A stretch of DNA of 64,000 bases from the NCBI RefSeq assembly GCF_023148685.1, contig NZ_JAHXNL010000009.1:124001-188000 (forward strand), in the 5' to 3' direction. The position numbers and the translations under genes were made by a program. This DNA comes from Georgenia sp. EYE_87. GTDB taxonomy: Bacteria > Actinomycetota > Actinomycetes > Actinomycetales > Actinomycetaceae. Of this stretch, positions 1-19,122 are shown in pieces. The notes under the pieces are model-generated. The model was not told the DNA's origin and did not search any database. It was given only the letters and a program-made list of their open reading frames with translations. Each line of letters begins with the position of its first letter. The stretch's first letter is position 1.

Positions 1-1160
1 TGGTTCGGCAGGTCCAGCAGCTTCACCATGCCGCGCATGCGCACGAGGCTGATGACCAGGGACAGCAGGGTCGCGACGATCATGATGCCGGCGATGCTGA
101 TCATCAGGTCCGGGCTGTTGGTGAACAGCGACGGGCCGGGCTGCAGGCCCCAGATGATCATCGAGCCGAGCATGACGGCCATGACCGAGTCGCCGGGGAT
201 GCCCAGCGCCATGGTCGTCGTCAGCGAGCCGCCGAGAGTGGCGCTGGAGGCGGTGTCCGCCGCCGTGAGGCCCTCGAGGGAGCCCTTGCCGAACTTCTCC
301 GGGTGCTTGGACATGCGCTTGGCGCGGTCCCACCCGATGAGGCCGGCGATGTCGCCGCCGGCGGCCGGGACCACACCGACGACCATGCCGATGACGCTGC
401 TGACCCCGAACGGCCTGGCCATCTGCCGGTACTCGGACCGGGTCGGCCACCACCGTCCGAGGCTGGAGATCGGCTTGACGTGATGCGCGCGGTGGGTGAG
501 GAGCTGGTCGAAGAGCTCGGCGATGCCGAACAGGCCGATGATCACCGCGATGAACGGCAGGCCCGAGTTGAGGTCGTTGACGCCGAAGACGAACCGCGAG
601 TCCCCGGTGATGGGGTCGCGCCCGACGGTGGCGATGGCCAGGCCGGCGATGCCCGCGAGCACGCCCTTGACCACCGACTTCGAGGAGATCGAGATCATGA
701 TGGTCAGGCCGAAGACCACCAGGGCGAACATCTCAGCCGGGCCGAACTCGAGGGCGATGCTGGCCACCGGCCGCGCCGCCACGAGGAACAGCGCCATCGA
801 GAGCAGGATGCCGCCGGTCGTCACCATGGACGAGCTCACCAGGGCGAGGCCGGCCTTGCCCTGCTTCGCGAGCGGATAGCCGTCCAGGGTGGTCGCGATG
901 GCGGCCGGTGTCCCCGGCGTGTTGACCAGGATGGACGGGATCCGGTCGCCGTAGTTGGCGCCCACGTAGATGGTGAGGAGGACCGCGAGCCCCTGCACGG
1001 GCTCCAGCGTGAGCGTGAAGCCGGAGGCGAGCGCCACGGCCATCGACCCGGTCACGCCGGGGAACGCGCCGACCAGCGTCCCCACCATGAGGCCGATGAG
1101 CAGGCAGACGGCGACGGTCGGGTCGAGCAGGGCGCCCAGGCCCTCGGCGACGGCGTTCAC
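1..1160 (-). CDS. tctA: TctA, large permease subunit of a tripartite tricarboxylate transporter (3' end cut off)
   Basis: Large membrane subunit of a tripartite tricarboxylate transporter (TTT), a secondary carrier that takes up a carboxylate handed over by the periplasmic TctC protein. The translation from 1160 begins VNAVAEGLGALLDP and is a chain of hydrophobic segments with TctA-family stretches such as LVGAFPGVTGSMA near the start, PAAGGDIAGLIGWDRAKRM and LGIPGDSVMAVMLGSMIIWG. About 386 codons are present; the family is near 500 residues, so the C-terminus lies beyond the left edge. The GTG start overlaps the tctB stop by 4 bases (GTGA), which implies translational coupling. It is third in the order tctC-tctB-tctA behind a GntR regulator. 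The substrate cannot be read from the sequence. Confidence 0.93.
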   Translation of the reverse strand, partial: MNAVAEGLGALLDPTVAVCLLIGLMVGTLVGAFPGVTGSMAVALASGFTLTLEPVQGLAVLLTIYVGANYGDRIPSILVNTPGTPAAIATTLDGYPLAKQGKAGLALVSSSMVTTGGILLSMALFLVAARPVASIALEFGPAEMFALVVFGLTIMISISSKSVVKGVLAGIAGLAIATVGRDPITGDSRFVFGVNDLNSGLPFIAVIIGLFGIAELFDQLLTHRAHHVKPISSLGRWWPTRSEYRQMARPFGVSSVIGMVVGVVPAAGGDIAGLIGWDRAKRMSKHPEKFGKGSLEGLTAADTASSATLGGSLTTTMALGIPGDSVMAVMLGSMIIWGLQPGPSLFTNSPDLMISIAGIMIVATLLSLVISLVRMRGMVKLLDLPN

Positions 1161-1774
1161 AGCGGCACCTTCAGGAGTGTGTGGAAGAGCAGGTAGATGA
1201 ACCCCGTCATGACCACGGGGAAGAGGATGAGCGTCTTCCAGCCGCGGCCACCGAAGAGGTAGGTCGCGGCGACGAGGAAGATCGGCGTCACGACCAGGAA
1301 GCCGAGCGCGGGCCAGAGCAGCACGAAGACGACGGAGAGCACGACGGCGAGCCCGACACGGACCCAGCCCTGCCGCGTGGCCGCCTCGAGGTCGTCACGG
1401 TCGAACGGCGGACGGACGACGGCGACCACGAGCAGGAGCACCCCCAGGGCGAGGCCCGCGAGGCCGAGCAGCTCGGGCCACCAGCGCGGGTCGATGCCGT
1501 CCGTCTCGGTGCGGACCTTGATGGCGCGGGCCAGCACGACGAGGGCGCCGGACCCGACGACCGCGATGGCCGCGCAGACGATCTCCAGGCGGCGGGACGG
1601 CCGGGCGAGCGGGGCGTGGTCCGCCTCGCCGGCCGCCTCGACGGCGTCGGCGGCGTCGTGCGCGAGCAGCTCCTCGGCCGGCGGCACGCGATCGACGTGC
1701 GGGCCGGGCACCGGGGCTGCCCCGTCCGGCTGAGCGGACGGGGCAGCCGGCGTGCCCTTGCGGGAACGGATCAT
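1157..1774 (-). CDS. tctB: TctB, small membrane subunit of the tripartite tricarboxylate transporter
   Basis: Small integral-membrane subunit that works with TctA. The 205-residue product has a long polar N-terminal extension (about 65 residues rich in Ala, Pro, Asp and Glu) followed by four hydrophobic helices: around 66-86, 97-115, 130-165 as a pair, and the C-terminal stretch ending HTLLKVPL. This is the DUF1468/TctB layout. The ATG at 1774 overlaps the tctC stop (TGATG), and the stop overlaps the tctA GTG start. TctB proteins are usually 140-180 residues, so the acidic N-terminal extension is longer than usual. The same-frame extension upstream is only read-through of tctC in another frame. 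Confidence 0.9.
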   Translation of the reverse strand: MIRSRKGTPAAPSAQPDGAAPVPGPHVDRVPPAEELLAHDAADAVEAAGEADHAPLARPSRRLEIVCAAIAVVGSGALVVLARAIKVRTETDGIDPRWWPELLGLAGLALGVLLLVVAVVRPPFDRDDLEAATRQGWVRVGLAVVLSVVFVLLWPALGFLVVTPIFLVAATYLFGGRGWKTLILFPVVMTGFIYLLFHTLLKVPL

Positions 1775-2775
1775 CAGCGGGCTCCGAGGATCTCTCCGAA
1801 GCGCTCGTACTCGGAGTTCACGAAGTCGGTGAACTCGGCCGAGTCGCGGTAGACGGGCAGGTTGCCGGCCGTGGTGATGGTCTCGATGAAGCCGTCCGAG
1901 TTGGCGGCCTCCTCGATGGCGGACTCGAGGGTCGAACGGACGTCGTCCGGCAGACCGGCCGGCGCGTAGATGCCGCCCCAGCCGCCGAACTCGAGGTCGT
2001 AGCCGGCCTCGGCAGCCGTCGGCACGTCGGGCATGTCGGGGTGGCGCTCGTCGTGGAAGATGGCGAGCGGGCGCACCTGGCCCTCCTTGTAGGCCGTGAG
2101 CGTCTCGCCGGCCCCGCCGACGGCGGCGTCCACCTGGCCGCCGATGGCCGCCGCGAGGGCGGGGGCCCCGCCGTCGAAGGGGACGGAGGCGAGCTGGGCG
2201 CCCGTCTCGTCCGCGAGCCCGAACGCCGCAGCCTCCCAGATGGAGCCCGCGCCGGAGTTGGCGACGGCGAGCTCCTCGGACTGGGCGGCCTCGACGAAGT
2301 CCTCGAGCGTCTGGTGGGGGCTGTCGGCGGGCACGGACAGGATGCCCGGAGCGAGCATGATCTGGCCGAGGAAGTCGTAGTTCGCCGGGTCGACGTCGAA
2401 GTCCTGGTGGCCCAGCATCGAGATCTCCACCGGGACGAAGCCGATGGTGTAGCCGTCCGGGTCCTGCTCGGCCACGTACTGCATGGCCGTGGAGCCGGAC
2501 GCGCCGGGACGGTTCTCGACGATGATCGAGGTGTCCAGGATGGGCTCGAGCTCGGCGACGAGCGCGCGGGAGCTGAGGTCCGAGCCACCGCCGGCGGCGG
2601 CCTGGACGATGAAGTTGATGTCCTGCTCGGGGTAGCCCGAGGCCTCGCCGCCGTCGGTGGCGGCTCCGCCGTCGGCACCGTCGGCGGCACCGTCGTCGGC
2701 GCCGCCGGAGCAGGCGGCGAGGACGAGCGCGAGGGCGGACAGGGCGACTGCCGAGGTGAGTCGGGTGCGCATCAT
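1774..2775 (-). CDS. tctC: TctC, lipoprotein solute-binding protein of the TTT carrier
   Basis: Extracytoplasmic solute receptor (Bug/TctC family) that captures a carboxylate ligand for TctAB. The 333-residue protein starts MMRTRLTSAVAL with a signal peptide and a lipobox LVLAAC, so it should be a lipid-anchored binding protein, as expected in a Gram-positive cell. A Ser/Gly/Asp-rich linker follows. Family features are the QDINFIVQAAAGGGSD opening, the IIVENRPGASG motif and the GYDLEFGGWGGIYAP region. An AAGGAG ribosome binding site lies ten bases before the start. The spacer between them is largely the palindrome GTTGTACAAC, a candidate operator for the upstream GntR protein. It is the first transporter gene of the tctCBA group. 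Confidence 0.95.
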   Translation of the reverse strand: MMRTRLTSAVALSALALVLAACSGGADDGAADGADGGAATDGGEASGYPEQDINFIVQAAAGGGSDLSSRALVAELEPILDTSIIVENRPGASGSTAMQYVAEQDPDGYTIGFVPVEISMLGHQDFDVDPANYDFLGQIMLAPGILSVPADSPHQTLEDFVEAAQSEELAVANSGAGSIWEAAAFGLADETGAQLASVPFDGGAPALAAAIGGQVDAAVGGAGETLTAYKEGQVRPLAIFHDERHPDMPDVPTAAEAGYDLEFGGWGGIYAPAGLPDDVRSTLESAIEEAANSDGFIETITTAGNLPVYRDSAEFTDFVNSEYERFGEILGAR

Positions 2776-2776
2776 G

Positions 2777-2786: not shown

Positions 2787-2843
2787 TCCTTCGTCGGTAC
2801 AGCGGGGGAGGGGTTCGCTCCGCCGGATCGGCGGAGGAGGGCG

Positions 2844-3530
2844 TTACGGGGTGGCGATGAAGCGGGCGTAGGCGGTGAGCATGCGGGTGCGCGAGCCGTC
2901 GATGTGCTCGCGCAGGACCGGGGCGACGGCCGCGTGGTCGCCGGCCCCGATGAGATCGAGCAGCTCGACGTGGTCGCGGTGTATCGGGGCGAGGTCCCGG
3001 TCCTCGGCGTTGGTGACCGAGAGCATCCCGGCGAAGGTCGGGCGGTACTGCTGCCAGATGCTGCCGAGCCTGCGGTGGCCGGAGTGGGCGTAGAACGCCG
3101 TGTGGAAGTCGAGGTCCGCCTCGGCGAACCCGACGGGGTTGGCCCGTTCGGCCGCGGCCCCCATGCGATCGAGCGCCGAGCGGGCCTCGGTGAGGTCGGA
3201 GCCTGCCTCCATGCACAGCCGGACGGCCTCGGCCTCGAGGACCTGGCGCAGGAGGTAGAGCTCCTCGATGTCCTCGCTGCGCAGCCCGATGACGAAGACG
3301 CCGCGGCGGCGGGACTCGACGAGTCCCTCGGTCTCGAGCTGGCGCAGGGCGTCCCGAACGGGCCCGCGGCTGACGTTGAAGCTCTCCGAGAGCTGGCTCT
3401 CGACGAGGTGGGTCCCGGCCTGCAGGTCGCCGGTGATGATCAGCCGCCGCAGGTGGTCCACCACGTGCTGGCCGAGCGCCGGAGCGGGCGGGATGGTGAC
3501 GGCGTTGCGCAGAGCGCTGTTGACAGCCAT
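2844..3530 (-). CDS. GntR-family regulator, FCD (FadR-type) subfamily
   Basis: DNA-binding transcription regulator of 228 residues. Residues about 18-85 are a GntR winged helix (GQHVVDHLRRLIITGDL, then SFNVSRGPVRDALRQLETEGLV), and residues about 95-220 are an all-helical FCD effector domain with the metal-ligand pattern of this subfamily (D in EADLDFHTAFY, then H residues in the RDHVELLDLI and LREHIDG stretches). FCD domains usually bind small carboxylates, consistent with control of the adjacent tctCBA transporter. The start at 3530 is preceded by GAGGAGG. It is transcribed toward tctC with a 68-base gap and is divergent from the LacI gene. The palindromes at 2777 and 3566 are its most likely operators. 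Confidence 0.92.
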   Translation of the reverse strand: MAVNSALRNAVTIPPAPALGQHVVDHLRRLIITGDLQAGTHLVESQLSESFNVSRGPVRDALRQLETEGLVESRRRGVFVIGLRSEDIEELYLLRQVLEAEAVRLCMEAGSDLTEARSALDRMGAAAERANPVGFAEADLDFHTAFYAHSGHRRLGSIWQQYRPTFAGMLSVTNAEDRDLAPIHRDHVELLDLIGAGDHAAVAPVLREHIDGSRTRMLTAYARFIATP

Positions 3531-3552: not shown

Positions 3553-3563
3553 GAAATCGATTA
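3553..3563. promoter_or_regulatory. LacI-type operator copy 1 (GAAATCGATTA)
   Basis: The sequence GAAATCGATTAC in the divergent gntR/lacI gap is repeated exactly, in inverted orientation, just before the FGGY kinase start (4866-4876). The centre AATCGATT has the AAnCGnTT symmetry typical of LacI-family operators. Together with the neighbouring lacI gene this suggests autoregulation plus control of the kinase operon. Confidence 0.6.
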
Positions 3564-3565
3564 CT

Positions 3566-4653: not shown

Positions 4654-4865
4654 GATCCGGAGGGTTCGCCCGCGCCGCCGCTGCCGAGGCCCCGGCGGGT
4701 CCGCCCTGCCGCGGGTGTCGAGGCCGCGGCCTCCCCTGGCGCGGGTGCCGAGGCCGGAGCATCCTCCGTGAGGACCGCCTTCCGCGCTCGCGACGGCGGT
4801 CCGGGGACAGGTCCTGAGCAGGAACGTCGGCGCTCGGCGCGTCGGGCGGGGGCCGGTTGCGCCGG

Positions 4866-4876
4866 TAATCGATTTC
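4866..4876. promoter_or_regulatory. LacI-type operator copy 2 before the FGGY kinase operon
   Basis: TAATCGATTTC is the exact reverse complement of the site at 3553-3563. It ends 16 bases before the kinase ATG, where a bound repressor would block transcription of the whole catabolic and transport operon. The preceding gap (4654-4865) is GC-rich with a short GAGGCCGCGGCCTC palindrome at 4720 and no convincing gene. Confidence 0.6.
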
Positions 4877-4892: not shown

Positions 4893-6371
4893 ATGCGGCG
4901 GAGCGCGTACCTCGGTGTCGACATCGGCACCTCCAGCAGCAAGGGCGTGCTCGTCCTCCCCGACGGGGACATCCTCCGCACGGCGTCCCGCGCGCACACG
5001 GTCAGCCGGCCCGCGCCCGGCCACGTGGAGATGGATCCCGAGGTCTGGTGGGAGGAGTTCGTCGCCCTCGCCGGCGAGCTGACCGCCCCCGGAGACGTGG
5101 AGGTCGCGGCCGTCGGGGTCAGCGGCATGGGGCCGTGCGTCGTGCTCACCGACGACCGGGGGACGGTGCTGCGCCCGGCCATCCTCTACGGGGTGGACAC
5201 GCGCGCGACGGCGCAGATCGAGCGGCTCGACGCCGAGCTGGGCCGGGAGGCGATCCTCGACCGGGCGGGCTCGGTGCTGTCGAGCCAGGCGGTCGGCCCG
5301 AAGATCGCCTGGGTGCGCGAGCACGAACCAGACGTCTACGCCCGCGCCCGCCGCCTCTTCATGCCCGCGTCGTGGCTCGCCCACCGGCTCACGGGCGAGT
5401 ACGTGCTCGACCACCACTCGGCGAGCCAGTGCACGCCCCTCTACGACACCCGCGCCCTGGACTGGTACGCCCCCTGGGCCGAGCACGTCGCGCCGGGGCT
5501 GGACCTGCCCGCGCTGCGCTGGCCCGGCGAGCGGGCCGGCGTGACCCGCCGTGAGGTGGCCGGGATCCCGGCCGGGGTCCCGGTCATCACCGGCACGATC
5601 GACGCCTGGTCCGAGGCGGTCAGCGTCGACGCCCAGAACCCCGGCGACCTCATGCTCATGTACGGCACGACCATGTTCCTCATCGCCACGGTGCCCGAGC
5701 GCGTCACGTCCGAGCTGATGTGGGGCACCGTCGGGGCGTTCGAGGGCACGCGCAACCTCGCCGGCGGCATGGCGACGTCCGGGGCGATCACCTCCTGGCT
5801 GCGGGACCTGACCGGCGGCACCGACTACCCGACGCTGCTCGCCGAGGCCGCCGCCTCCGGCCCGGGCGCCCGCGGGCTGCTGGCCCTGCCGTACTTCGCG
5901 GGGGAGCGCACCCCGATCTTCGACCCCGACGCCCGTGGCGTGATCGTGGGGCTGACGCTTTCCCACACCCGGGGCGACCTCTACCGGGCGGTCCTGGAGG
6001 CGACGGCGTTCGGGGTCCGCCACAACGTCGACGCCCTCCGGGCGGCGGGCGCGCGGATCGACCGGGTGGTCGCCGTCGGCGGCGGCACCCAGGGCGAGCT
6101 GTGGACCCAGATCGTCTCCGACGTCACCGGCCTGCCCCAGACCATCCCCACCCGGACCATCGGCGCCAGCTACGGGGCCGCGTACCTCGCGGCCCGCCTG
6201 GTCGAGGACGTCTCGATGGCGAGCTGGAACCCCGCCGCCGAGGTCCGCGAGCCCGACCCGCGCGCCACCGCGCTCTACGACGACCTCTACCGCCACTACC
6301 TCGACCTCTACCCCGCCACCCGTGACGTCGTGCACGCGCTGGCGCGCCTCCAGCACGAAGGAGCCTCATGA
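4893..6371 (+). CDS. FGGY-family carbohydrate kinase
   Basis: ATP-dependent sugar kinase of the FGGY (xylulokinase/glycerol kinase) family, 492 residues, the usual length. The N-terminal domain shows YLGVDIGTSSSKGVLV (phosphate-binding) and ILYGVDTRA near the sugar site. The C-terminal domain carries GTIDAWSEAVS with the expected catalytic-base Asp, LMLMYGTTMFLI, LALPYFAGERTPIFDPDARG and the ATP-binding AVGGGTQGELWTQIVSDVTG. FGGY kinases usually phosphorylate the terminal hydroxyl of a ketose or polyol; the exact substrate is not readable. It is first in the LacI-linked operon, and its stop overlaps the isomerase start by 4 bases (ATGA). Confidence 0.93.
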   Translation: MRRSAYLGVDIGTSSSKGVLVLPDGDILRTASRAHTVSRPAPGHVEMDPEVWWEEFVALAGELTAPGDVEVAAVGVSGMGPCVVLTDDRGTVLRPAILYGVDTRATAQIERLDAELGREAILDRAGSVLSSQAVGPKIAWVREHEPDVYARARRLFMPASWLAHRLTGEYVLDHHSASQCTPLYDTRALDWYAPWAEHVAPGLDLPALRWPGERAGVTRREVAGIPAGVPVITGTIDAWSEAVSVDAQNPGDLMLMYGTTMFLIATVPERVTSELMWGTVGAFEGTRNLAGGMATSGAITSWLRDLTGGTDYPTLLAEAAASGPGARGLLALPYFAGERTPIFDPDARGVIVGLTLSHTRGDLYRAVLEATAFGVRHNVDALRAAGARIDRVVAVGGGTQGELWTQIVSDVTGLPQTIPTRTIGASYGAAYLAARLVEDVSMASWNPAAEVREPDPRATALYDDLYRHYLDLYPATRDVVHALARLQHEGAS

Positions 6372-8005
6372 CCTACACCCTGCCTGCCCCGACGACCCCG
6401 GCGACCGCGCCGGAGCGCACCGCGTACCTCGTCCCCAGCGGCGACCTGCGCGAGTCGGCCAACGTCGCCGGCTGGCCCACCCAGGTCGAGCTCGAGAGGG
6501 TCGTCGCGGACGCCCTCGCCGCCAACGGCTGGGCCGTCGAACGGGCGCTCGGCGTCGACCCGGACACCGGGCACGGCTTCATCTCCAGCCAGCGGATGGG
6601 CCTGAAGGTCTTTCGCTCGATCCCACGCGACGCGCCGCTGATCGTTGCCACGGCCATCTGGCAGTACAGCCACCACGTCCTCGCCGGGCTGCGCAGCCAC
6701 CGCGGGCCGATCCTCACCGTCGCGAACTTCGCGGGCGACTGGCCCGGGCTGGTCGGGCTCCTCGGCCTCAACGCCGGGCTGACCAAGATGGGCCGGCCGT
6801 ACTCGACGATCTGGACCGTCGACGGCTCCGACGCGTGGTTCCGGGACGGCATCCGGTCGTGGCTGGAGACCGGCACCGTCACCCACGACGACAGCCACGT
6901 CCGCGACCTGCCGCCGCTCGGCCCCAGCCCGGAGCGGGAGCTGGGCGAGGCGCTGGCCGACCAGCTCCTGGACGAGAAGGCGATCATCGGCGTCTTCGAC
7001 GAGGGCTGCATGGGCATGTACAACGCCATCATCGACGACGAGCTGCTCAACCCGCTGGGCATCTACAAGGAGCGGCTCTCCCAGTCGGCCCTGTGGGCCG
7101 AGATGCAGACCGTCACCGACGAGGAGGCCGACGCCGTCGGCCGCTGGCTCACCGAGGCCGGGATGACGTTCCGCACCGGCACCGTCGAGGCCACCGAGCT
7201 CACCGAGACCCAGCTGCGCTGGCAGCACAAGATGTACGTCGCCGCCCTGCGCCTCTCCGACGACTTCGGCCTCGACGCCGTCGGCATCCAGTACCAGCAG
7301 GGGCTGAAGAACCTCGCGCCGGCCTCGGACCTGGTCGAGGGGCTGCTGAACAACGTCGCCCGCCCGCCGGTGACCAGCCGGGACGGCTCCCGCGTGCTGT
7401 ACGAGGGCAAGGCGCTGCCGCACTTCAACGAGGTGGACGAGGGGGTCGCCGTCGACGCGCTGATCACCAACCGCATCTGGACCGCGATGGGGCTGGACCC
7501 GGCCAACACGCTGCACGACGTGCGCTGGGGCGAGGAGTACGACGGGCAGTTCGTCTGGGTCTTCGAGATCTCCGGCTCGGTCCCGCCGTCGCACTTCGCG
7601 GGCGGCTACGCCGACGCCGAGGGCTGGCGCCAGGACCCGGTGTTCTTCCCCGCCGGCGGGGCGACGATCAACGGCGTGTCGAAGCCCGGCGAGATCGTCT
7701 GGTCGCGCGTCTACATCGCCGACGCCGGCCTGCACGTCGACCTCGGCCGGGCCAGCGTCGTCGAGCTGCCACCGGAGGAGACGGAGCGGCGCAAGCAGGC
7801 CACGAACCCCGAGTGGCCCATCGCCCACGTCGTCCTCCACGGCATCACCCGCGACCAGTTCATGGCCCGGCACAAGGCCAACCACGCCCAGGTCGTCTAC
7901 GCCCCCGACGCCGCCACCGCCGACAAGGCCCTGACCGCCAAGGCCGCGATGTTCGCCCGCCTCGGCGTCGCGGTGCACCTCTGCGGCGACGTCACGCCGG
8001 TATGA
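6368..8005 (+). CDS. L-fucose/L-arabinose isomerase-like protein
   Basis: Protein of 545 residues that I place with the L-fucose/L-arabinose isomerase superfamily, metal-dependent aldose-ketose isomerases. Supporting features are the layered alpha/beta N-terminus (PLIVATAIWQYSHHVLAGL, GPILTVANFAGDWPGLVGLL), the acidic GVFDEGCMGMYNAIIDDELL stretch resembling the metal-binding Glu region of fucose isomerases, and GLDAVGIQYQQGLKNLAP. The size is nearer fucose isomerase (about 590) than arabinose isomerase (about 500). A GAAGGAG ribosome binding site lies inside the end of the kinase gene, and start and stop both overlap neighbours by 4 bases. An isomerase coupled to an FGGY kinase implies aldose to ketose to ketose phosphate. 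The substrate is unknown; a fucose identity should not be assumed. Confidence 0.75.
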   Translation: MTYTLPAPTTPATAPERTAYLVPSGDLRESANVAGWPTQVELERVVADALAANGWAVERALGVDPDTGHGFISSQRMGLKVFRSIPRDAPLIVATAIWQYSHHVLAGLRSHRGPILTVANFAGDWPGLVGLLGLNAGLTKMGRPYSTIWTVDGSDAWFRDGIRSWLETGTVTHDDSHVRDLPPLGPSPERELGEALADQLLDEKAIIGVFDEGCMGMYNAIIDDELLNPLGIYKERLSQSALWAEMQTVTDEEADAVGRWLTEAGMTFRTGTVEATELTETQLRWQHKMYVAALRLSDDFGLDAVGIQYQQGLKNLAPASDLVEGLLNNVARPPVTSRDGSRVLYEGKALPHFNEVDEGVAVDALITNRIWTAMGLDPANTLHDVRWGEEYDGQFVWVFEISGSVPPSHFAGGYADAEGWRQDPVFFPAGGATINGVSKPGEIVWSRVYIADAGLHVDLGRASVVELPPEETERRKQATNPEWPIAHVVLHGITRDQFMARHKANHAQVVYAPDAATADKALTAKAAMFARLGVAVHLCGDVTPV

Positions 8006-8781
8006 GCCTGAAGCAGGCGTGGGCCGACGGCCGGGTCACCTTCGGCGTGTGGAGCGCCCTGGACGACCCGGTCGCCGCCGAGATCGTCGGCCGCGCCGGG
8101 TTCGACCTGGTGTGCGTCGACCTCCAGCACGGCTTCGCCGACCCCGGCTCGGCGACGGCGATCCTCGCCGCGCTGCACCGCACGCCGGCCGCGAGCGTCG
8201 TCCGGGTGGCGTGGAACGCGCCGGAGCAGATCATGCGCGCGCTCGACCTCGGTGCCGAGGGCGTGATCGTGCCGATGGTCGACGACGCCGAGCAGGCGCG
8301 CCGCGCCGTGGCCGCCTGCCGCTACGCCCCCGCCGGGCGCCGCAGCTGGGGACCGCTGTGGGGCGACGCGCGGCGCGGCGCCCCCGAGCCGGACGAAGGG
8401 GACCGCCTCGCCACCTGCATCCTCATGATCGAGACGGCCGACGGCCTGGCCAACGTCGAGGAGATCGTGCGGGTGCCCGGGGTGGACGCCGTCTACGTCG
8501 GTCCCAACGACCTGGCGCTCTCCCTCGGGCTCGGCCGCCGGCCGGAGGCGCCCGAGCTGGAGGAGGCGGTCCTGCGGGTCGTCGATGCGGCCCGGGGCGC
8601 GGGCGTGGCGGTCGGGATCGACCGGGCGGACCCGGCGGGCGCCCGCCGCTGGGCGGAGCGGGGGATGGACCTGGTCATCGCCGCCCGCGACTCGGTGCTG
8701 CTGCGCGAGGCCGCCGACCGTGCTGCCCGCGAGCTGCGGCGAACGGACGTACCGAGCGACGGCCACCCGTCCGGCGCCTAG
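8002..8781 (+). CDS. HpcH/HpaI-family aldolase of the sugar operon
   Basis: Class II, metal-dependent aldolase of the HpcH/HpaI family, 259 residues, the usual size. Diagnostic segments are FGVWSALDDPVAAEIVGRAG, the substrate-loop motif VDLQHGF, GAEGVIVPMVDDAEQARRAV, CILMIETADGLANVEEI with the metal-ligand Glu, and VYVGPNDLALSLGLG with the metal-ligand Asp. Known members make or break 3-deoxy-2-keto acids or related aldols. Translationally coupled to the isomerase (ATGA). It differs clearly from the second family member at 16286, which belongs to aromatic degradation. In this operon it probably cleaves the phosphorylated ketose or a derived keto acid. Confidence 0.88.
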   Translation: MSLKQAWADGRVTFGVWSALDDPVAAEIVGRAGFDLVCVDLQHGFADPGSATAILAALHRTPAASVVRVAWNAPEQIMRALDLGAEGVIVPMVDDAEQARRAVAACRYAPAGRRSWGPLWGDARRGAPEPDEGDRLATCILMIETADGLANVEEIVRVPGVDAVYVGPNDLALSLGLGRRPEAPELEEAVLRVVDAARGAGVAVGIDRADPAGARRWAERGMDLVIAARDSVLLREAADRAARELRRTDVPSDGHPSGA

Positions 8782-8819
8782 TGTTCTCATCAACTCAGGA
8801 TCGCAAGGGAGCTGGTCCC

Positions 8820-10568
<1,749 letters not shown>

Positions 10569-10611
10569 CCGCCAGACCCCGCACGCGTCAACGAAGAACC
10601 GAGGAGACATC

Positions 10612-11682
10612 ATGACCAGGATCCCCACGTCCCGCCGGCTGGCCGCCGTCGCCGTCGCCGCGCTCGCCCTCCCGCTCGCCGTCACCGCCTGCGGCAGCCT
10701 CGAGGAGGACGGCGACGGCGCGGCGCCCGGCGCCGGCGGCGGCACCTCCGCGCCGCCCGCCGGCGGCGGGGACGGTCCCACGATCGTCACCGTGCCCAAG
10801 CTGACGGGCATCTCGTGGTTCACCCGCATGGGCGAGGGCACCGACCGCTACGCCCAGGAGACCGGCGTCGACGCCTACATGCAGGGCTCCGGCCAGGCGG
10901 ACGCCAACGCCCAGGTGCGCGTGATCGAGGACCTCCTCGCCGGCGGCGTCGACGCGCTCGCCGTCGTCCCCTTCCAGCCCGACGCCGTCGAGCAGGTCCT
11001 CGCCCAGGCGATGGAGGAGGACGTCATCGTCATCACGCACGAGGCGCCCGGGATCCAGAACGCCGACTGGGACCTCGAGGCGTTCCGCAACGAGGACTAC
11101 GGCGTCAACCTCATGGACGAGCTCGCCTCCCGCATGGGCGAGGAGGGCGAGTACGCCGCCATGGTCGGCTCGCTGAGCTCCGCGACGCACATGGCCTGGG
11201 TCGAGGCGGCCATCGCCCACCAGGAGGAGACCTACCCGAACATGACGCACGTCGGGGACATCGTCGAGACCTCCGACGACTCCCAGATCGCCTACGAGCG
11301 CATGCAGGAGCTCCTCTCCGCGTACCCCGACCTCAAGGGCGTGCAGGGCTCGGCCTCCACCGACGTCGTCGGCGTCGGGCAGGCGGTCGACGAGGCCGGG
11401 CTGCAGGACACGATCGCCGTGGTGGGCACCAGCACCGCCAACGACGCGCGCGCCGGGCTGGAGTCCGGCGCGATCGACCTGATCGCGTTCTGGGACCCCG
11501 CCGACGCCGCCTACGCGATGAACGTGATCGCCAAGAAGATGCTCGACGGCGAGGAGATCACCGACGGCATGGACCTCGGCGTCGCCGGGTACGAGAAGAT
11601 CACCCTCGACGGCAAGGTCATCTACGGCGACGAGGCGTGGATCACGGTGACCACCGACAACGCCGACGAGTATGACTTCTGA
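10612..11682 (+). CDS. Sugar ABC transporter lipoprotein substrate-binding protein
   Basis: Periplasmic-binding-protein-like sugar receptor (type I fold, RbsB/RhaS/LsrB group), 356 residues. It has a signal peptide and lipobox (LPLAVTAC), then a Gly/Pro-rich linker and the binding domain with IVTVPKLTGISWFTRMGEGT, LLAGGVDALAVVPFQPDAV, GTSTANDARAGLESGAIDLI and FWDPADAAYAMNVI. These resemble the rhamnose/autoinducer-2 binding-protein subgroup more than ribose or xylose receptors; that is a family-level impression. The last 11 bases overlap the ATPase start. It feeds the two permeases downstream. Confidence 0.92.
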   Translation: MTRIPTSRRLAAVAVAALALPLAVTACGSLEEDGDGAAPGAGGGTSAPPAGGGDGPTIVTVPKLTGISWFTRMGEGTDRYAQETGVDAYMQGSGQADANAQVRVIEDLLAGGVDALAVVPFQPDAVEQVLAQAMEEDVIVITHEAPGIQNADWDLEAFRNEDYGVNLMDELASRMGEEGEYAAMVGSLSSATHMAWVEAAIAHQEETYPNMTHVGDIVETSDDSQIAYERMQELLSAYPDLKGVQGSASTDVVGVGQAVDEAGLQDTIAVVGTSTANDARAGLESGAIDLIAFWDPADAAYAMNVIAKKMLDGEEITDGMDLGVAGYEKITLDGKVIYGDEAWITVTTDNADEYDF

Positions 11683-13204
11683 GGTCCTCCAGGACGGGGC
11701 GCCGCTCCCCGAGAGCGGCGCCCCGGTCGCCGTCGCCGTCCGCGGCATCACCAAGACCTACGGGACGGTCCGGGCGCTCGACGGTGTGGACCTGACGCTG
11801 CGGCGGGGGACCGTCCACGGTCTCGTCGGCGAGAACGGGTCCGGGAAGTCGACGCTGACCAAGATCATCGCCGGCGTCGTCACCCCGGACTCCGGCTCGA
11901 TCGAGATCGACGGCGACCCGGTCGAGCACGTGGACCCGCGCACCAGCATCGCGCACGGCGTCCGCGTGATCTTCCAGGACCTCGCCCTCTTCCCCAACAT
12001 GACCGTCGCCGAGAACCTCGTCTTCGAGGGCGAGGCGCCGATGCTGCGCCGGGTGAGCGGACGGGCCGCGCGCGAGCACGCGCGCCGGGCGCTGGACGCG
12101 CTCGGCCTCGACATCGACCCCGCGGCGCTGCTCGGGGACCTCTCGACGGCGGAGCGCCAGCTCGTCGCCATCGCCCGGACGGTCTCCTCCGACGGGCGCA
12201 TCATCCTCATGGACGAGCCGACGGCGGCGCTCACCCACGACGAGATCGAGCAGCTGCTCGGCACCGTCCGCTCGCTCAGCGAGCAGGGGCTCTCCTTCAT
12301 CTTCATCTCCCACAAGCTGCGGGAGGTCGTGTCGATCGCCGACGACGTCACGGTCATCCGCGACGGCCGGGTGGTGGCGTCCGGGGCCGCGGCCGACTAC
12401 GACACCGACCGCATCACCTCGCTCATGACGGGCGGGGTCGTCGAGAACGTCCGCCGCGCCACGCCGGTCTCCTCCGAGGAGACGCCGGTGATGCAGGTCA
12501 GGAACCTGACGCTGCGGTCCAGCTTCCACGACATCGACCTCGACCTCTACCGCGGGCGGGTGCTCGGGCTCGCCGGACTGGTGGGCTCGGGCCGCATCGA
12601 GATCGGCCTCGCCCTCGCCGGCCTGGTCGGGCCCGAGCGCGGCGAGATCCGCCTGGGGGGGAAGGTGGCCCGGGACCTGCGGGGGGACCGCCGCCTGCAG
12701 TACGTCCCCGACGACCGGCTGACCGAGGGCCTGTTCCTCGGCTGGTCGATCGCCGACAACATCGTCACGAACAACCTCGACGAGGCGGTGGGCAGCGGCC
12801 GGACGCTGTCGACGGGGAAGATCAAGGAGCTGGCCGACCGCTGGCGCGGCCGGCTCGCGATCAAGACGCCCGACGTCACGAACCCGGCGCTGTCGCTCTC
12901 GGGCGGGAACCAGCAGCGCGTGCTGCTGGCCCGCGCCCTCGCGCCCCGCCCCGAGGTCATCATCCTGAACAACCCGACCGTCGGCGTCGACATCGGGTCC
13001 CGCGCGGACATCCACAACCTCGTCCGCGGGATCGCCGACGAGGGGACCGCTGTGCTCGTCATCTCGGACGAGCCGGCGGAGCTGCTGAGCGTGTGCGACG
13101 ACATCGTGTTCGTCCACCGCGGGCGCATCATCGACGAGCGCCGTGCCGACTCGCTCGACGAGGAGGAGCTGTTGGACATCATCAGCAAGGGAGGCGCGTC
13201 ATGA
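11672..13204 (+). CDS. Sugar ABC transporter, tandem ATP-binding protein
   Basis: Duplicated ABC ATPase of the ribose/rhamnose (CUT2) class, 510 residues. The first domain has Walker A GENGSGKST, the signature region DLSTAERQLVAIARTV and Walker B IILMDEPTAAL. The second has a degenerate nucleotide loop (LVGSGRIEIGLALAG) but a clean LSGGNQQRVLLARAL signature and IILNNPTVGVDIGS. This asymmetry is normal for CUT2 systems. The start lies within the end of the binding-protein gene, and the stop overlaps the first permease (ATGA). Confidence 0.95.
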   Translation: MTSEVLQDGAPLPESGAPVAVAVRGITKTYGTVRALDGVDLTLRRGTVHGLVGENGSGKSTLTKIIAGVVTPDSGSIEIDGDPVEHVDPRTSIAHGVRVIFQDLALFPNMTVAENLVFEGEAPMLRRVSGRAAREHARRALDALGLDIDPAALLGDLSTAERQLVAIARTVSSDGRIILMDEPTAALTHDEIEQLLGTVRSLSEQGLSFIFISHKLREVVSIADDVTVIRDGRVVASGAAADYDTDRITSLMTGGVVENVRRATPVSSEETPVMQVRNLTLRSSFHDIDLDLYRGRVLGLAGLVGSGRIEIGLALAGLVGPERGEIRLGGKVARDLRGDRRLQYVPDDRLTEGLFLGWSIADNIVTNNLDEAVGSGRTLSTGKIKELADRWRGRLAIKTPDVTNPALSLSGGNQQRVLLARALAPRPEVIILNNPTVGVDIGSRADIHNLVRGIADEGTAVLVISDEPAELLSVCDDIVFVHRGRIIDERRADSLDEEELLDIISKGGAS

Positions 13205-14202
13205 TCCGCCGCGTCCTTGCCAGCCGCGAGGCCCTGCTCCTGGCGGTCATCGTGGTGCTGGCTCTCGTCTTCGGTCTCCTGGCACCCCAGTTCTTCTCGC
13301 TCGCGCACCTCTTCGGCATCGCCCGCAGCTCGGTCGTCATCGGCATCATGGCGCTCGGCCTGCTGGTCGTGCTGATCACCGGCGGCATCGACGTCTCCGT
13401 CTCCGCGACGGCCGTGGCGTCCATGTACATCACGGCGGTCCTCCTCACGGACCTGGACTACCAGGGTCCCTTCGTGGTGGCGGCGGTGCTGGCCTGCGTC
13501 GTCGGGGCGGTGTTCGGCCTCGTCAACGCCACCCTGGTCTCGCTGCTGAAGCTGCCGTCCCTGATCGTCACCCTCGGCACGCTGACCCTGTTCCGCGGGG
13601 GCCTCCTGGCGTTCGTCGGCACCGAGCGGCTGCGCGTGCTCCCGGCCCGGATGACCGAGTTCTCCAGCACCCAGCTCTTCACCGTCACCTCGGCCGGCCG
13701 GCAGGCGTCCCTGCACCTCGCGGTGCTCATCCTGGCGGTGCTCGCCGTCGCCCTCGCCCTGGCCCTGCGCCGGACCAACTGGGGCCGGAACCTCTACGCC
13801 GTCGGCGGCAACGAGGAGGCCGCCACCCGGCTCGGCGTCGCCGTGACCCGGGTCCGCTTCAGCGCGTTCGTGCTCGCCGGCACCCTGGCCGGCCTCGCGG
13901 GCCTGATGAGCGGCTCTCTCAACCGGGCCGCCGACCCGTTCACGATCGTGGGCACCGAGATGGACGTCCTCGCCGCCGTCGTGCTCGGCGGCGCCTCCGT
14001 CACCGGCGGACGGGGCACCGTCTTCGGCACGATGCTGGGCGTCCTGCTCATCACGATGGTCGGGGCCAGCCTCGTCCTCGTCGGCATCCCGTCGGCCTGG
14101 CGCCAGGCCTTCGTCGGGCTGTTCCTCATCCTCGGTGTCGGCGTGCCGGCCCTGAGACAACGGCGGGTCGAGCGTGCCCGCGGAGTGGTGGTGTCGGCCT
14201 GA
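13201..14202 (+). CDS. Sugar ABC transporter permease 1
   Basis: CUT2-type inner-membrane permease of 333 residues with about 8-10 hydrophobic helices. Family marks are GIMALGLLVVLITGGIDVSV, FGLVNATLVSLLKLPSLIVT, NWGRNLYAVGGNEEAATRLG (the ATPase-contact loop) and DVLAAVVLGGASVTGGRG. Stop and start overlap both neighbours, so it is tightly coupled. With permease 2 it should form a heterodimeric channel, as in RhaPQ or LsrCD systems. Confidence 0.94.
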   Translation: MIRRVLASREALLLAVIVVLALVFGLLAPQFFSLAHLFGIARSSVVIGIMALGLLVVLITGGIDVSVSATAVASMYITAVLLTDLDYQGPFVVAAVLACVVGAVFGLVNATLVSLLKLPSLIVTLGTLTLFRGGLLAFVGTERLRVLPARMTEFSSTQLFTVTSAGRQASLHLAVLILAVLAVALALALRRTNWGRNLYAVGGNEEAATRLGVAVTRVRFSAFVLAGTLAGLAGLMSGSLNRAADPFTIVGTEMDVLAAVVLGGASVTGGRGTVFGTMLGVLLITMVGASLVLVGIPSAWRQAFVGLFLILGVGVPALRQRRVERARGVVVSA

Positions 14203-15272
14203 TGGACGCACGACTCGGCAGCAAGCTGCACATCGTCTCCCTCCTCGGGCTCGTGGTCCTGCTCTTCGTCGTCCTGAGCATCCTCGCGCCCAGCTCCTAC
14301 CCGACCGTCCGCAACATCGTCTCGATGGCCAGCCAGATGGCCCCGATCGGCATCCTCGCCCTGTGCGTCGCGCTCACCTTCCTCATCGGCGGCATCGACC
14401 TCTCGATCGTGGCGGTGGCCAACGCCGCGGCCATCGCGGCGGCGAGGACCATCGCGGCCCTGGAGCCACGGACCGGAGTGGCGCCGGCCGTCCTGGTCGG
14501 CGTCGTCGCGGCGCTCGCCGTCGGCGTCCTCGCCGGGATCATCAACGGCACGCTGATCTCCTACCTGCGGGTGCACCCGATCCCGATCACCCTCGGCACG
14601 CTGGGGCTGTTCGCCGGCGTCTCCACCGGCCTCACCGGCGGCAGCACGGTCTACGGCACCGGGAGCCTGCGGTTCCTGGGGCGCGGGACCCTCGCCGGCA
14701 TCCCGGTCTCCTTCCTCATCTTCGCGCTCCTGGTGGCCGCGCTGGCCTTCCTGACCACCAGGACGCGGTTCGGGTTCCGGATGTACGCGATCGGGGCGTC
14801 GGAGAAGGTCAGCAGGTTCGCCCGCATGGACGTCGAGCGCGCCCAGGTCGTCACCTACATCGTCAGCGGGCTGCTCGCCTCGACCGCCGGGCTGGTCATG
14901 TTCGCGGGCACCAACGCCGCGAACGTCTCCTTCGGCTCCTCGTTCCTCATCCAGGCGATCCTCGTGGCCGTCCTCAGCGGCGTGGACACCTACGGAGGAC
15001 GGGGGCGCATCGCGCTCGTCATCCTCGCCGTGGCCGCCATGCAGCAGGTCCAGACCGGGATCAACATGGCGCTCGGGCGGTGGTCGGGGGCCAACTTCGC
15101 CGCCGAGTTCGGCTGGGGCGTCCTGCTGATCGCGGTGCTCGGCCTCAGCCAGCGGCTGGGCGACGGGACCCGCAGACCGGGCTGGCGGTTCTGGAGCCGG
15201 GACCGGGGCGGCGCCGAGCCGCCGGGCGGCGGGTCCGGCGTCCGGCCCGAGCAGTCGGTCGACGCGGTGTGA
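14202..15272 (+). CDS. Sugar ABC transporter permease 2
   Basis: Second CUT2-type permease, 356 residues, with the same layout as its neighbour: PIGILALCVALTFLIGGIDL, GIINGTLISYLRVHPIPITL, TRFGFRMYAIGASEKVSRFA and AILVAVLSGVDTYGGRGRIA. In the last motif the usual GGxS is replaced by SGVDTYGG. A polar tail of about 40 residues (GDGTRRPGWRFWSRDRGG onward) extends into the cytoplasm. The ATG overlaps the permease 1 stop by one base (TGATG). Confidence 0.93.
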   Translation: MDARLGSKLHIVSLLGLVVLLFVVLSILAPSSYPTVRNIVSMASQMAPIGILALCVALTFLIGGIDLSIVAVANAAAIAAARTIAALEPRTGVAPAVLVGVVAALAVGVLAGIINGTLISYLRVHPIPITLGTLGLFAGVSTGLTGGSTVYGTGSLRFLGRGTLAGIPVSFLIFALLVAALAFLTTRTRFGFRMYAIGASEKVSRFARMDVERAQVVTYIVSGLLASTAGLVMFAGTNAANVSFGSSFLIQAILVAVLSGVDTYGGRGRIALVILAVAAMQQVQTGINMALGRWSGANFAAEFGWGVLLIAVLGLSQRLGDGTRRPGWRFWSRDRGGAEPPGGGSGVRPEQSVDAV

Positions 15273-15339
15273 CAGCCCCGAACCACGCACGGGTCCTCCG
15301 ACCCGCGCACTCCACCCCTTCAGCAAGGAGCATCTCGAT

Positions 15340-16227
15340 ATGGCTCGCGTGACATTTCTCGGTCTGGGCACGATGGGGCGCGGCATGGTGAAGAACCTGC
15401 TGCGCGCCGGACACGCCGTGACGGTCCACAACCGCAGCGAGGGACCGCTCGCCGAGGTGGTGGCCCAGGGCGCGCAGGCGGCGCCGTCGGTCGCCGAGGC
15501 GGTCCGGGGGGCGGAGTACGTCATGTACTGCCTCGCGGACGACCAGGCCATCGAGGACGTGGTCCTCGGCGAGGGCGGCCTCGCGGGGCTGGTCCCCACG
15601 GACGCCCTGGTGATCGACCTCTCCACCGTCTCGCCCTCGGTCGGGCTCCGCGAGCACGAGGCGTACGCCGCCCGCGGCGTGCGCTTCCTGGACGCCCCGG
15701 TGTTCGGCTCGCGCGGCGAGACCGAGGCCGGCGGGCTGTGGGTGGTGGTCGGGGGACGCGAGGAGGACTTCGAGGCGGCCCGCCCCGTGCTCGAGCCCAT
15801 CGCGGAGACCCTGCACCACATGGGTCCGGCGGGCAGCGGGCACCGGATGAAGCTGGTGGGCAACCTGCTCGTCGCCTCCCAGCTCCAGGCGCTCGGCGAC
15901 GCGCTGGTGCTCGCCAAGAAGGCCGACCTGGACCTCGAGGCGGTGCTCGGGGTCCTCGACGTCACCGACTTCCGCACCCCGATCTACTCGGGGGTCGGCC
16001 GGCGCGTCCTGAGGGGCGACCACTCGCCTGACTTCGCGCTCAAGCTGCTCGTGAAGGACCTGCACCTCATCCGGCAGTTCGCCCGCGAGCTGGACGTGTC
16101 GCTGCCGTCGACCGAGGCCACCACGCGCGTGGCGGAGAAGGCGCTCGCGGAGGGCCTCGGCGAGGAGAACGCCTCCGCGATCATCAAGGTGGTCGCCGAG
16201 GAGGCGGGCGTCGGGCTCGCCCGCTGA
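15340..16227 (+). CDS. NAD(P)-dependent beta-hydroxyacid dehydrogenase (3-hydroxyisobutyrate dehydrogenase family)
   Basis: Reductase/dehydrogenase of 295 residues. The N-terminal Rossmann motif is FLGLGTMGRGMVKNLLRAGH, the substrate region LDAPVFGSRGETEAG matches the family DAPVSGG motif with changes, and the catalytic Lys sits in GSGHRMKLVGNLLVASQLQAL. Relatives act on 3-hydroxyisobutyrate, tartronate semialdehyde or other short hydroxy acids and aldehydes. An AAGGAG ribosome binding site precedes the ATG. It is 67 bases after permease 2 and is followed by a strong hairpin, so it is probably the last gene of the LacI-linked operon and may reduce a short aldehyde produced by the aldolase. 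Confidence 0.88.
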   Translation: MARVTFLGLGTMGRGMVKNLLRAGHAVTVHNRSEGPLAEVVAQGAQAAPSVAEAVRGAEYVMYCLADDQAIEDVVLGEGGLAGLVPTDALVIDLSTVSPSVGLREHEAYAARGVRFLDAPVFGSRGETEAGGLWVVVGGREEDFEAARPVLEPIAETLHHMGPAGSGHRMKLVGNLLVASQLQALGDALVLAKKADLDLEAVLGVLDVTDFRTPIYSGVGRRVLRGDHSPDFALKLLVKDLHLIRQFARELDVSLPSTEATTRVAEKALAEGLGEENASAIIKVVAEEAGVGLAR

Positions 16228-16285: not shown

Positions 16286-17107
16286 TCAGTAGCTGGCGCG
16301 CCCGCCGTCGTCGGTCGCCGGCACGAACGCCGCCGCGAGCGCCTCGGAGGCGCGGGCGAGCAGCGCCACGTCCGCGCCGACGAGCACGTATGACGCACCC
16401 GCTTCCAGGTAGGCGCGCGCGACCGCCTGGTCGAACGCGTTGACCCCGACCGGCTTGCCCGCCGCGCGTACGGCCTCGAAGGCGCGGTGCACGGCGGCGA
16501 CGACGTCCGGGTGGCTCTGCTGACCGAGCAGCCCCATCGAGGCGGAGAGGTCGGACGGGCCGACGAACACCCCGTCCACGCCGTCGACGGCCGCGATCTC
16601 GGCGGCGGCGTCGACCCCCTCCGCGGTCTCGATCTGCACGAACAGCGACACGTGCTCGTCGGCGTCCGCGAGGTACCGGTCGACCCGGTTCCACCGGGCG
16701 GAGCGGGCCAGGGCGGACCCGACGCCGCGCCGCCCGCGCGGCGGGTACCGCACGGCCTCGACGGCGGCCAGCGCCTCCTCGGCGGAGGAGATCATCGGCA
16801 CCAGCAGGTTCTGCGCCCCGAGGTCGAGCACCTGCTTGATGGTCACGACGTCGCCGATCGGCACGCGCACCACCGGGGTGACCGGGTAGGCGGCGACCGC
16901 CTGGAGCTGCCCGAGCACGGACTCCAGGCCGTTGGGGGAGTGCTCCATGTCGATGAGCATCCAGTCCAGGCCCGCGCCCGCGCAGATCTCGGCGACGAGC
17001 GGGCTGCCCGAGCACACCCAGATGCCGGCGAGCGCGCGGGCGTCCGCGCCCCGGTCCTGCTGCTCCGCCAGGGCGTGGCGGAAGGTCGGTGTCAGGCGAA
17101 GCGGCAT
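16286..17107 (-). CDS. hpaI: HpaI, 4-hydroxy-2-oxoheptanedioate aldolase (HpcH/HpaI family)
   Basis: Last carbon-cleaving step of homoprotocatechuate degradation: 4-hydroxy-2-oxoheptanedioate to pyruvate plus succinic semialdehyde. The 273-residue protein has the family segments LAGIWVCSGSPLVAEICAGA, MLIDMEHSPNG, DLGAQNLLVPMISSAEEALA, FVQIETAEGVDAAAEI (metal Glu) and VFVGPSDLSASMG (metal Asp). The MEHSPN signature is typical of true HpaI proteins. The ATG at 17107 lies inside the end of the hydratase gene (16-base overlap). It is the last gene of the minus-strand operon starting at 22899. Confidence 0.92.
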   Translation of the reverse strand: MPLRLTPTFRHALAEQQDRGADARALAGIWVCSGSPLVAEICAGAGLDWMLIDMEHSPNGLESVLGQLQAVAAYPVTPVVRVPIGDVVTIKQVLDLGAQNLLVPMISSAEEALAAVEAVRYPPRGRRGVGSALARSARWNRVDRYLADADEHVSLFVQIETAEGVDAAAEIAAVDGVDGVFVGPSDLSASMGLLGQQSHPDVVAAVHRAFEAVRAAGKPVGVNAFDQAVARAYLEAGASYVLVGADVALLARASEALAAAFVPATDDGGRASY

Positions 17108-17877: not shown

Positions 17878-17925
17878 CCGATCCTCCTGGTCGTGCCCCG
17901 CGGTCGGGACCGGTGAGGTGGGCGG

Positions 17926-19092: not shown

Positions 19093-19122
19093 GTCAGCGT
19101 CCTTGCCTCTCGTTCGGGGGTG

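What the first reader, a model, noticed from the sequence alone, without database searches (positions are those of the whole stretch)
4893..16227. Unassigned sugar catabolic operon: isomerase, FGGY kinase, HpcH/HpaI aldolase, DhaK-DhaL kinase, ABC importer
Eight genes that are mostly overlapping or closely spaced, plus a terminal dehydrogenase, combine enzyme families I have not seen together in a known pathway. The FGGY kinase should phosphorylate the terminal carbon of the isomerised sugar. If the aldolase then cleaves between C3 and C4, it would release dihydroxyacetone (not DHAP) and a phosphorylated aldehyde, and the DhaKL fusion would rescue the dihydroxyacetone. This explains why a second kinase is needed. 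An erythrulose-type substrate for DhaKL, with the aldolase acting on a keto acid, is the alternative.
Basis: partly seen in the sequence, partly recalled or inferred. Interest (0 to 1): 0.7.

Follow-up and report, generated by a model that had tools for sequence, protein, structure and literature searches.

The report
D-arabinose operon with added triose genes
This is most likely a bacterial operon for taking up and burning D-arabinose or D-ribulose, a sugar route proposed in bacteria that digest mycobacterial cell walls, onto which genes for handling small keto sugars and keto acids have been added.

Summary
The nine genes are real and co-directional (4893-16227), behind a LacI regulator (3697-4653). 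The FGGY kinase comes first, then the isomerase. That pair is not unassigned: isomerase relatives (68-83% identical) lie in the 80 actinobacterial loci kept from a scan (kinase in 57), and 45 of the 80 carry D-arabinan hydrolase genes (GH172, GH116 or GH183). One is from Microbacterium arabinogalactanolyticum, whose published D-arabinan locus is proposed, untested, to turn D-arabinose into D-ribulose 5-phosphate. The predicted isomerase fold matches L-fucose/D-arabinose isomerases. A likely LacI operator occurs twice in the genome, once just before the kinase. The ABC binding protein keeps 5 of 6 residues that hold D-ribulose in AauA (PDB 9I1M). The aldolase keeps the 2-oxo-acid (HpaI) active site, so ketose-phosphate cleavage to dihydroxyacetone is unlikely. 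DhaK, DhaL, dehydrogenase and importer form a separate cassette in other genomes; a congener has both modules, apart. Best reading: a composite LacI-controlled pentose operon; aldolase, DhaKL and dehydrogenase serve additional keto-acid or short-ketose substrates. Those roles are inferred.

The parts
3553..3564 (.). likely operator GAAATCGATTAC, 22 bases before the GntR gene and 132 bases before the LacI gene
   Evidence: one of only two perfect sites in the genome
3697..4653 (+). LacI-family regulator
   Evidence: PF00356, PF00532; LacI-family hit over 42% identity in 62 of 80 related loci
4865..4876 (.). likely operator GTAATCGATTTC, 16 bases before the kinase start codon
4893..6371 (+). FGGY kinase, proposed D-ribulokinase
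   Evidence: (XylB-like, 312.7 bits)
6368..8005 (+). FucI-family isomerase, proposed D-arabinose isomerase
8002..8781 (+). HpcH/HpaI aldolase, proposed 2-oxo-acid (2-keto-3-deoxy sugar acid) aldolase
8820..10568 (+). fused DhaK-DhaL kinase (dihydroxyacetone or short ketose)
10612..11682 (+). sugar-binding protein of the importer; keeps 5 of 6 D-ribulose contacts of AauA
11672..13204 (+). ABC transporter ATPase (sugar type)
13201..14202 (+). ABC permease 1 (PF02653)
14202..15272 (+). ABC permease 2 (PF02653)
15340..16227 (+). 3-hydroxyisobutyrate/tartronate-semialdehyde type dehydrogenase
   Evidence: 57-59% identical partner of DhaK-DhaL in four other cassettes
2844..3530 (-). GntR-family regulator of a divergent cluster whose start region holds the other operator
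   Evidence: same in congener
1157..2775 (-). TctB and TctC genes of a tripartite importer; the cluster goes on beyond the window start with TctA, a BNR_2 protein and a DHDPS-family protein

Best explanation
A composite sugar operon under one LacI repressor. Step 1 (inferred from binding-site residues): the ABC importer takes in D-ribulose or a like pentose such as D-arabinose. Step 2 (inferred from orthology, fold and published context): the FucI-type isomerase turns D-arabinose into D-ribulose. Step 3 (inferred): the FGGY kinase makes D-ribulose 5-phosphate, which enters the pentose phosphate pathway, so no aldolase is needed on this route. Step 4 (weaker inference): the HpcH/HpaI enzyme cleaves a 2-keto-3-deoxy sugar acid to pyruvate and an aldehyde, and the DhaKL-dehydrogenase pair, of a kind found elsewhere in a separate importer cassette, phosphorylates a C3-C4 ketose and handles a small beta-hydroxy acid or semialdehyde. 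Shown here: gene content, relatives and their neighbours, the conserved operator-like site, conserved residues, and that the modules exist apart. Not shown: any enzyme activity, substrate, repressor binding or single transcript.
For: Isomerase: 80 loci kept of 597 or more matching stretches; kinase hit over 50% identity in 57 of 80, LacI-family hit over 42% in 62 of 80, aldolase, binding protein and dehydrogenase in 0 of 80, DhaKL in 1 of 80. 45 of 80 carry GH172 (40), GH116 (29) or GH183 (18) genes by profiles built from clusters whose representatives have the matching Pfam domains; in 11 loci the order is kinase-GH116-isomerase, among them L034, from the strain of PMC10509167, where D-arabinose and cell-wall extract induce the GH genes and the authors propose isomerase and kinase leading to D-ribulose 5-phosphate (passages; I did not match locus tags). 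Model of the isomerase (pLDDT 90.1): all 41 Foldseek hits at E<=0.001 are L-fucose, D-arabinose or L-arabinose isomerases, best E 1.3e-22. Site core AATCGATT before 37 of 54 kinase, 27 of 68 LacI and 8 of 79 isomerase genes against 0.018 per 250 bases on average (the second kinase copy of this genome is among the 54); the 12-base form occurs at two places in this genome, at the same two places in G402, and not in the 7 other congeners. Binding protein: K63, W69, E144, H193, S249 equal AauA K37, W43, E118, H167, S223; D222 replaces E196. Aldolase keeps D40, H43, R68, E144, D170. G402 has LacI-kinase-isomerase-aldolase (kinase 85%, isomerase 83%, aldolase 77%, LacI 71% identical) and, on another contig, an importer-DhaK-DhaL-dehydrogenase cassette.
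Against: No activity of this isomerase-kinase family is reported in the passages read, and none was measured here. A genome search with DUF608 (GH116) found none in G000, G402 or G398 while both control genomes rang; DUF2961 found none in these three but rang nowhere at all, so it proves nothing, and DUF4185 found none in G000 and G402 and one partial match in G398. So this organism seems to lack the D-arabinan enzymes and the sugar must come free. 35 of the 80 related loci show none of the three hydrolases. The genome holds a second kinase-isomerase pair (67% and 78% identical) in a locus with rhamnulokinase-like and RhaD-like genes, an RbsD/FucU-family gene and a TAL/FSA gene, so the family may also serve L-fucose-like sugars. 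The binding protein is 43-48% identical to proteins of DhaK-type, DeoC-type and ribulose-type loci alike, and its best PDB match is 5bra (263.7 bits), not AauA (187.8), so its substrate rests on a few residues. The roles of aldolase, DhaKL and dehydrogenase are not resolved.
Confidence: 0.6

Rival explanations
1. One reading: the isomerised and terminally phosphorylated sugar is cut between C3 and C4 by the HpcH/HpaI enzyme to dihydroxyacetone plus a phosphorylated aldehyde; DhaKL rescues the dihydroxyacetone.
For: All four enzymes are in one operon, and isomerase and aldolase genes overlap by 4 bases, also in congener G402. DhaKL keeps the GGGSGH, GIHGE and GDGDLG motifs.
Against: The aldolase keeps the HpaI site for 2-oxo acids, including the arginine that is changed in the entry 4b5w. 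G402 has kinase-isomerase-aldolase without an adjacent DhaKL, and DhaKL cassettes exist without isomerase or HpcH aldolase. D-ribulose 5-phosphate needs no cleavage.
Confidence: 0.07
2. An L-fucose, L-galactose or other operon for a longer sugar: the isomerase acts on a sugar with the D-arabinose configuration at C2-C4 but a longer chain.
For: FucI-fold enzymes take both L-fucose and D-arabinose (recalled); the second copy in this genome lies beside rhamnulokinase-like, RhaD-like and FucU-family genes.
Against: No class II (fuculose-phosphate type) aldolase gene is in this operon; the kinase is XylB-like, with the L-fuculokinase model at only 94.1 bits; D-arabinan hydrolases accompany 45 of 80 relatives, and the same operator-like site is used.
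Confidence: 0.15
3. The importer belongs with DhaKL and the dehydrogenase and brings in a short ketose such as erythrulose or dihydroxyacetone; it has nothing to do with the pentose arm. (This can be true together with a D-arabinose role of kinase and isomerase.)
For: Importer, DhaK, DhaL and dehydrogenase form a cassette in L085, L086, L107 and L110, in L084 without the dehydrogenase.
Against: The binding protein has Ser where all five of those cassette proteins have Gly; the protein of the ribulose-type locus L109 also has Ser there.
Confidence: 0.3

Closest known systems
D-arabinan utilisation locus of Microbacterium arabinogalactanolyticum (PMC10509167; passages)
   Same: related LacI, FGGY kinase and FucI-type isomerase (isomerase 75% identical in L034), same operator core
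   Different: here no GH172, GH116 or GH183 in the locus and none found in the genome (with the limits stated); an importer, aldolase, DhaKL and dehydrogenase are added
Rbl (Citrobacter rodentium) and Aau (EHEC) D-ribulose systems (PMC12307932; passages)
   Same: ABC importer whose binding protein shares 5 of 6 D-ribulose contacts with AauA; an FGGY kinase is present as in Rbl
   Different: the kinase is XylB-like, an isomerase of the FucI fold is present and no SIS-type isomerase is; L109 of congener G400 (FGGY, SIS and importer genes) is the nearer match to Rbl
Importer - DhaK - DhaL - HIBADH cassette of related actinobacteria (L085, L086, L107, L110)
   Same: homologous importer (binding protein 44-48%), DhaK (64-69%), DhaL (46-50%) and dehydrogenase (57-59%)
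   Different: here DhaK and DhaL are fused, the gene order differs, and LacI-kinase-isomerase-aldolase stand in front
HpaI / GarL class II aldolases
   Same: family and catalytic residues
   Different: below the NCBIfam cut-offs (167.8 of 368.8 and 160.7 of 406.75 bits); substrate unknown

Membership tests
L-fucose/D-arabinose isomerase (FucI) family | FucI fold and C-terminal domain | tested here: met
   best hits 6k1f, 3a9r, 4c20, 1fui; PF02952 30.8 bits, cut-off 29.3. Rmsd about 23 A and TM about 0.5 over the whole chain, so domain packing differs or is mispredicted
L-fucose/D-arabinose isomerase (FucI) family | Pfam models of the N-terminal FucI domains (that such models exist is recalled) | tested here: not met
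   only the C-terminal model matched; the family is a divergent branch
D-arabinose isomerase | converts D-arabinose to D-ribulose | not testable with these tools
   context only:
D-ribulokinase (FGGY) | FGGY N and C domains | tested here: met
D-ribulokinase (FGGY) | phosphorylates O5 of D-ribulose | not testable with these tools
   nearest model XylB, below cut-off; TIGR01315 pentulose kinase 109.6 of 408.7 bits
D-arabinan utilisation locus | GH172, GH116 or GH183 genes in locus or genome | tested here: not met
   (locus); genome: GH116 none with controls ringing, GH183 none, GH172 none but no control rang
HpcH/HpaI 2-oxo-acid aldolase | catalytic residues of HpaI (Asp, His, Arg, Glu, Asp) | tested here: met
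   D40, H43, R68, E144, D170; residue roles recalled, Arg marked by the 4b5w change
dihydroxyacetone kinase family (DhaKL) | NCBIfam PRK14479 above cut-off | tested here: met
   590 bits, cut-off 492; the stricter equivalogs dhaK1 and dak_ATP are below theirs
D-ribulose-binding protein (AauA type) | six contact residues | tested here: inconclusive
   five identical, Glu196 is Asp
tartronate semialdehyde reductase | NCBIfam TIGR01505 above cut-off | tested here: not met
   182.7 bits, cut-off 340.75; HIBADH superfamily domains by Pfam

The most novel reading that the evidence does not exclude
One LacI regulon for two fates of the same pentose family: the operator-like site sits both 16 bases before the kinase and 22 bases before the divergent GntR-TctC-TctB-TctA-BNR-DHDPS cluster, in this genome and at the same places in G402. 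The regulon would take D-arabinose/D-ribulose to D-ribulose 5-phosphate and, in parallel, a D-pentonate or its 2-keto-3-deoxy acid to pyruvate and glycolaldehyde by HpcH- and DHDPS-type aldolases, while DhaKL and the dehydrogenase process the C3-C4 products. That would be an undescribed dual D-pentose/pentonate regulon.
Probability: 0.15. Interest if true: 0.55.

Novelty: new variant of a known kind. Interest (0 to 1): 0.4.

Why it matters
It gives a testable substrate (D-arabinose/D-ribulose) for a widespread actinobacterial isomerase family for which I found no assay, links it to a conserved operator-like site, and shows a pentose module and a short-ketose cassette joined in one operon. It also points to a recurrent importer-DhaK-DhaL-dehydrogenase cassette whose substrate is unknown.

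Tried and rejected
Rejected: retro-aldol cleavage of a ketose phosphate by the HpcH enzyme; a D-arabinan-degrading locus (no GH172, GH116 or GH183 in the locus, and none found in the genome; only the GH116 search had control genomes that rang). Considered and left open: tetronate oxidation by the dehydrogenase to feed DhaKL (recalled chemistry, no test); a GarL/GarR-like aldarate route (no dehydratase gene in the operon).

Led nowhere or failed: ten paper searches, of which 34, 72 and 77 gave the papers used, which looked for this gene combination, listed no paper on it by title and abstract start. The class-level DhaKL search failed twice on the machine, so the wider spread of the DhaK cassette was not counted. 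The VIA-align library was not available.

Full report
Observation. The window holds nine co-directional genes at 4893-16227, preceded by a LacI-family gene at 3697-4653. All nine have Pfam matches. The order is kinase, isomerase, aldolase, DhaKL, binding protein, ATPase, two permeases, dehydrogenase; successive gaps are -4, -4, 38, 43, -11, -4, -1 and 67 bases, which fits one transcript but does not prove it.

The kinase-isomerase pair is a known module. In these 80, tblastn with the window genes finds a kinase (over 50% identity) in 57 and a LacI-family hit (over 42%) in 62, but the aldolase, binding protein and dehydrogenase in 0 and DhaKL in 1 (L046). Many loci are cut by contig ends, so these are minimum counts. 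Recurrent neighbours are DUF2961, GH116 and DUF4185 proteins; Pfam was run on one representative of each cluster. With profiles made from those clusters, 45 of 80 loci hold at least one: GH172 in 40, GH116 in 29, GH183 in 18; 35 hold none, and neither do the window, the second copy in this genome or the two congener loci. That DUF2961 is GH172 and DUF4185 is GH183 is taken from PMC10115798 (passages).

One of the 80, L034, is Microbacterium arabinogalactanolyticum JCM9171, with LacI - kinase - GH116 - isomerase and GH172 and GH183 genes nearby; eleven loci have the order kinase-GH116-isomerase. PMC10509167 (passages) reports for this strain that D-arabinose and mycobacterial cell-wall extract induce the GH genes, and proposes that a putative isomerase and kinase of the locus lead to D-ribulose 5-phosphate. 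The passages read report no assay of either enzyme, and I did not match its locus tags to L034. In a quick tree of 81 isomerases (77 of the 80 loci, 3 with short or missing gene calls dropped, plus four of this genus) the window protein falls in a set of 18 rows with support 96 that holds the four genus rows and seven GH-bearing loci, mostly Brachybacterium.

Fold. The AlphaFold model of the isomerase (32 sequences, pLDDT 90.1, pTM 0.91) matches only L-fucose, D-arabinose and L-arabinose isomerases among its 41 PDB hits at E<=0.001, best E 1.3e-22. TM-scores are about 0.5 and rmsd about 23 A over the whole chain, so the domains match but their packing does not, or is mispredicted. By sequence, phmmer finds nothing at E<=0.001 and the profile finds only D-arabinose isomerase 3a9r, at E 0.037.

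Regulation. The core AATCGATT lies within 250 bases before 37 of 54 kinase genes, 27 of 68 LacI genes and 8 of 79 isomerase genes of the fetched loci, against 0.018 per 250 bases on average. In this genome the form GWAATCGATTWC occurs at exactly two places: 16 bases before the kinase start codon, and between the LacI gene and a divergent GntR gene. In G402, same genus, it occurs at the same two places, and in the 7 other congeners nowhere. It goes with the LacI-kinase-isomerase unit: G398 has an isomerase in another setting and no site. That LacI binds it is inference.

Congener. G402 carries LacI - kinase (85%) - isomerase (83%) - aldolase (77%) and then other genes. On another contig it has a DeoR-like gene (read from its translation) and importer - DhaK - DhaL - dehydrogenase (L107). 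G403 has the second cassette too (L110), as do more distant genomes (L085, L086; L084 without the dehydrogenase). So the window operon joins two kinds of unit that exist apart. DhaK is only 63-69% identical to these and the binding protein 44-48%, lower than kinase and isomerase are between congeners, so the second half was probably not simply moved from the G402 type.

Importer. PDB 9I1M, second-best match of the binding protein (187.8 bits; the best is 5bra, 263.7), is AauA bound to D-ribulose (PMC12307932; passages). Of its six contact residues the window protein keeps five; Glu196 is Asp. The five DhaK-cassette proteins have Gly at the position of Ser223, which the paper says contacts the C5 hydroxyl; two proteins from loci with DeoC and ribokinase genes have Gln and Met at two sites. 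The protein of L109 (congener G400), beside FGGY, SIS and importer genes as in the Rbl system, keeps all six. The window protein thus looks more like a pentulose binder than like its DhaK-cassette relatives. This rests mainly on one position and is inference.

Aldolase. Aligned to HpaI it keeps the residues recalled as catalytic, D40, H43, R68, E144 and D170, including the arginine that is changed in the entry 4b5w. I fetched six loci of aldolase relatives. L092 and L093 (53% and 51%) sit with IlvD/EDD dehydratases and dehydrogenases, L093 also with an FAA-hydrolase-family gene; L094 and L095, of the same genus as L093, look alike; L091 (54%) has no such neighbours, and in L096 my gene caller did not find the gene. 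A 2-oxo-acid substrate is therefore more likely than a ketose phosphate. In the 396 genomes of the order sampled, the best hits outside this genome reach only 55% (G402 was not among its hits). Of the 9 genomes of the genus, 3 have the isomerase, and 2 of these (this one and G402) have the four-gene unit.

Cautions. No DUF608 (GH116) match was found in G000, G402 or G398 while both control genomes rang. DUF4185 gave none in G000 and G402 and one partial match in G398; DUF2961 gave none but rang nowhere. So this organism seems to depend on free sugar. It also has a second kinase-isomerase pair in a deoxyhexose-like locus (L083), so substrate breadth of the family is open.

Conclusion. The first arm is a D-arabinose/D-ribulose route into the pentose phosphate pathway (about 0.7 likely for that arm alone). 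The aldolase, DhaKL and dehydrogenase are best read as additional keto-acid and short-ketose functions placed in the same operon. I class it as a new variant of a known kind.

Noticed in passing
window 1157-3530 (-) and L100 9699-12545 (-): Divergent cluster GntR-TctC-TctB-TctA-BNR_2-DHDPS. A like GntR-Tct cluster is next to the LacI unit in G402, and TctA genes with DHDPS-type genes lie near the kinase-isomerase pair in L005, L026, L028, L030, L043 and L049.
   Followed up: partly
L083 5569-17410 (-): Second kinase-isomerase pair of this genome, with an RbsD/FucU-family gene, a TAL/FSA gene, another FGGY-like kinase, a rhamnulokinase-like gene and a RhaD-like bifunctional gene.
   Followed up: partly
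L085, L086, L107, L110 (and L084 without the dehydrogenase): Recurrent cassette importer - DhaK - DhaL - HIBADH-type dehydrogenase of unknown substrate; in L086 followed by a BtpA-family gene and an FGGY-like kinase 40% identical to the window's.
   Followed up: partly
L109 5729-12771 (-): Locus of congener G400 that resembles the Rbl D-ribulose system (FGGY kinase, SIS protein, importer); its binding protein keeps all six AauA contacts.
   Followed up: partly
L108 3841-14834: DhaKL beside RpiB-family and triose-phosphate-isomerase genes and a related importer, like an erythrulose-type pathway.
   Followed up: partly
L103 2100-10650: In Caballeronia insecticola a DhaK 68% identical follows an APH-family kinase, an IF-2B-family protein and a class II aldolase (read as methylthioribose kinase, its isomerase and aldolase) and an importer.
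   Followed up: partly
window 16286-20685 (-): Next operon looks like homoprotocatechuate meta-cleavage genes: a second HpcH/HpaI aldolase, an FAA-hydrolase-family protein, a glyoxalase/dioxygenase-family protein and an aldehyde dehydrogenase (pathway name is my reading).
   Followed up: partly
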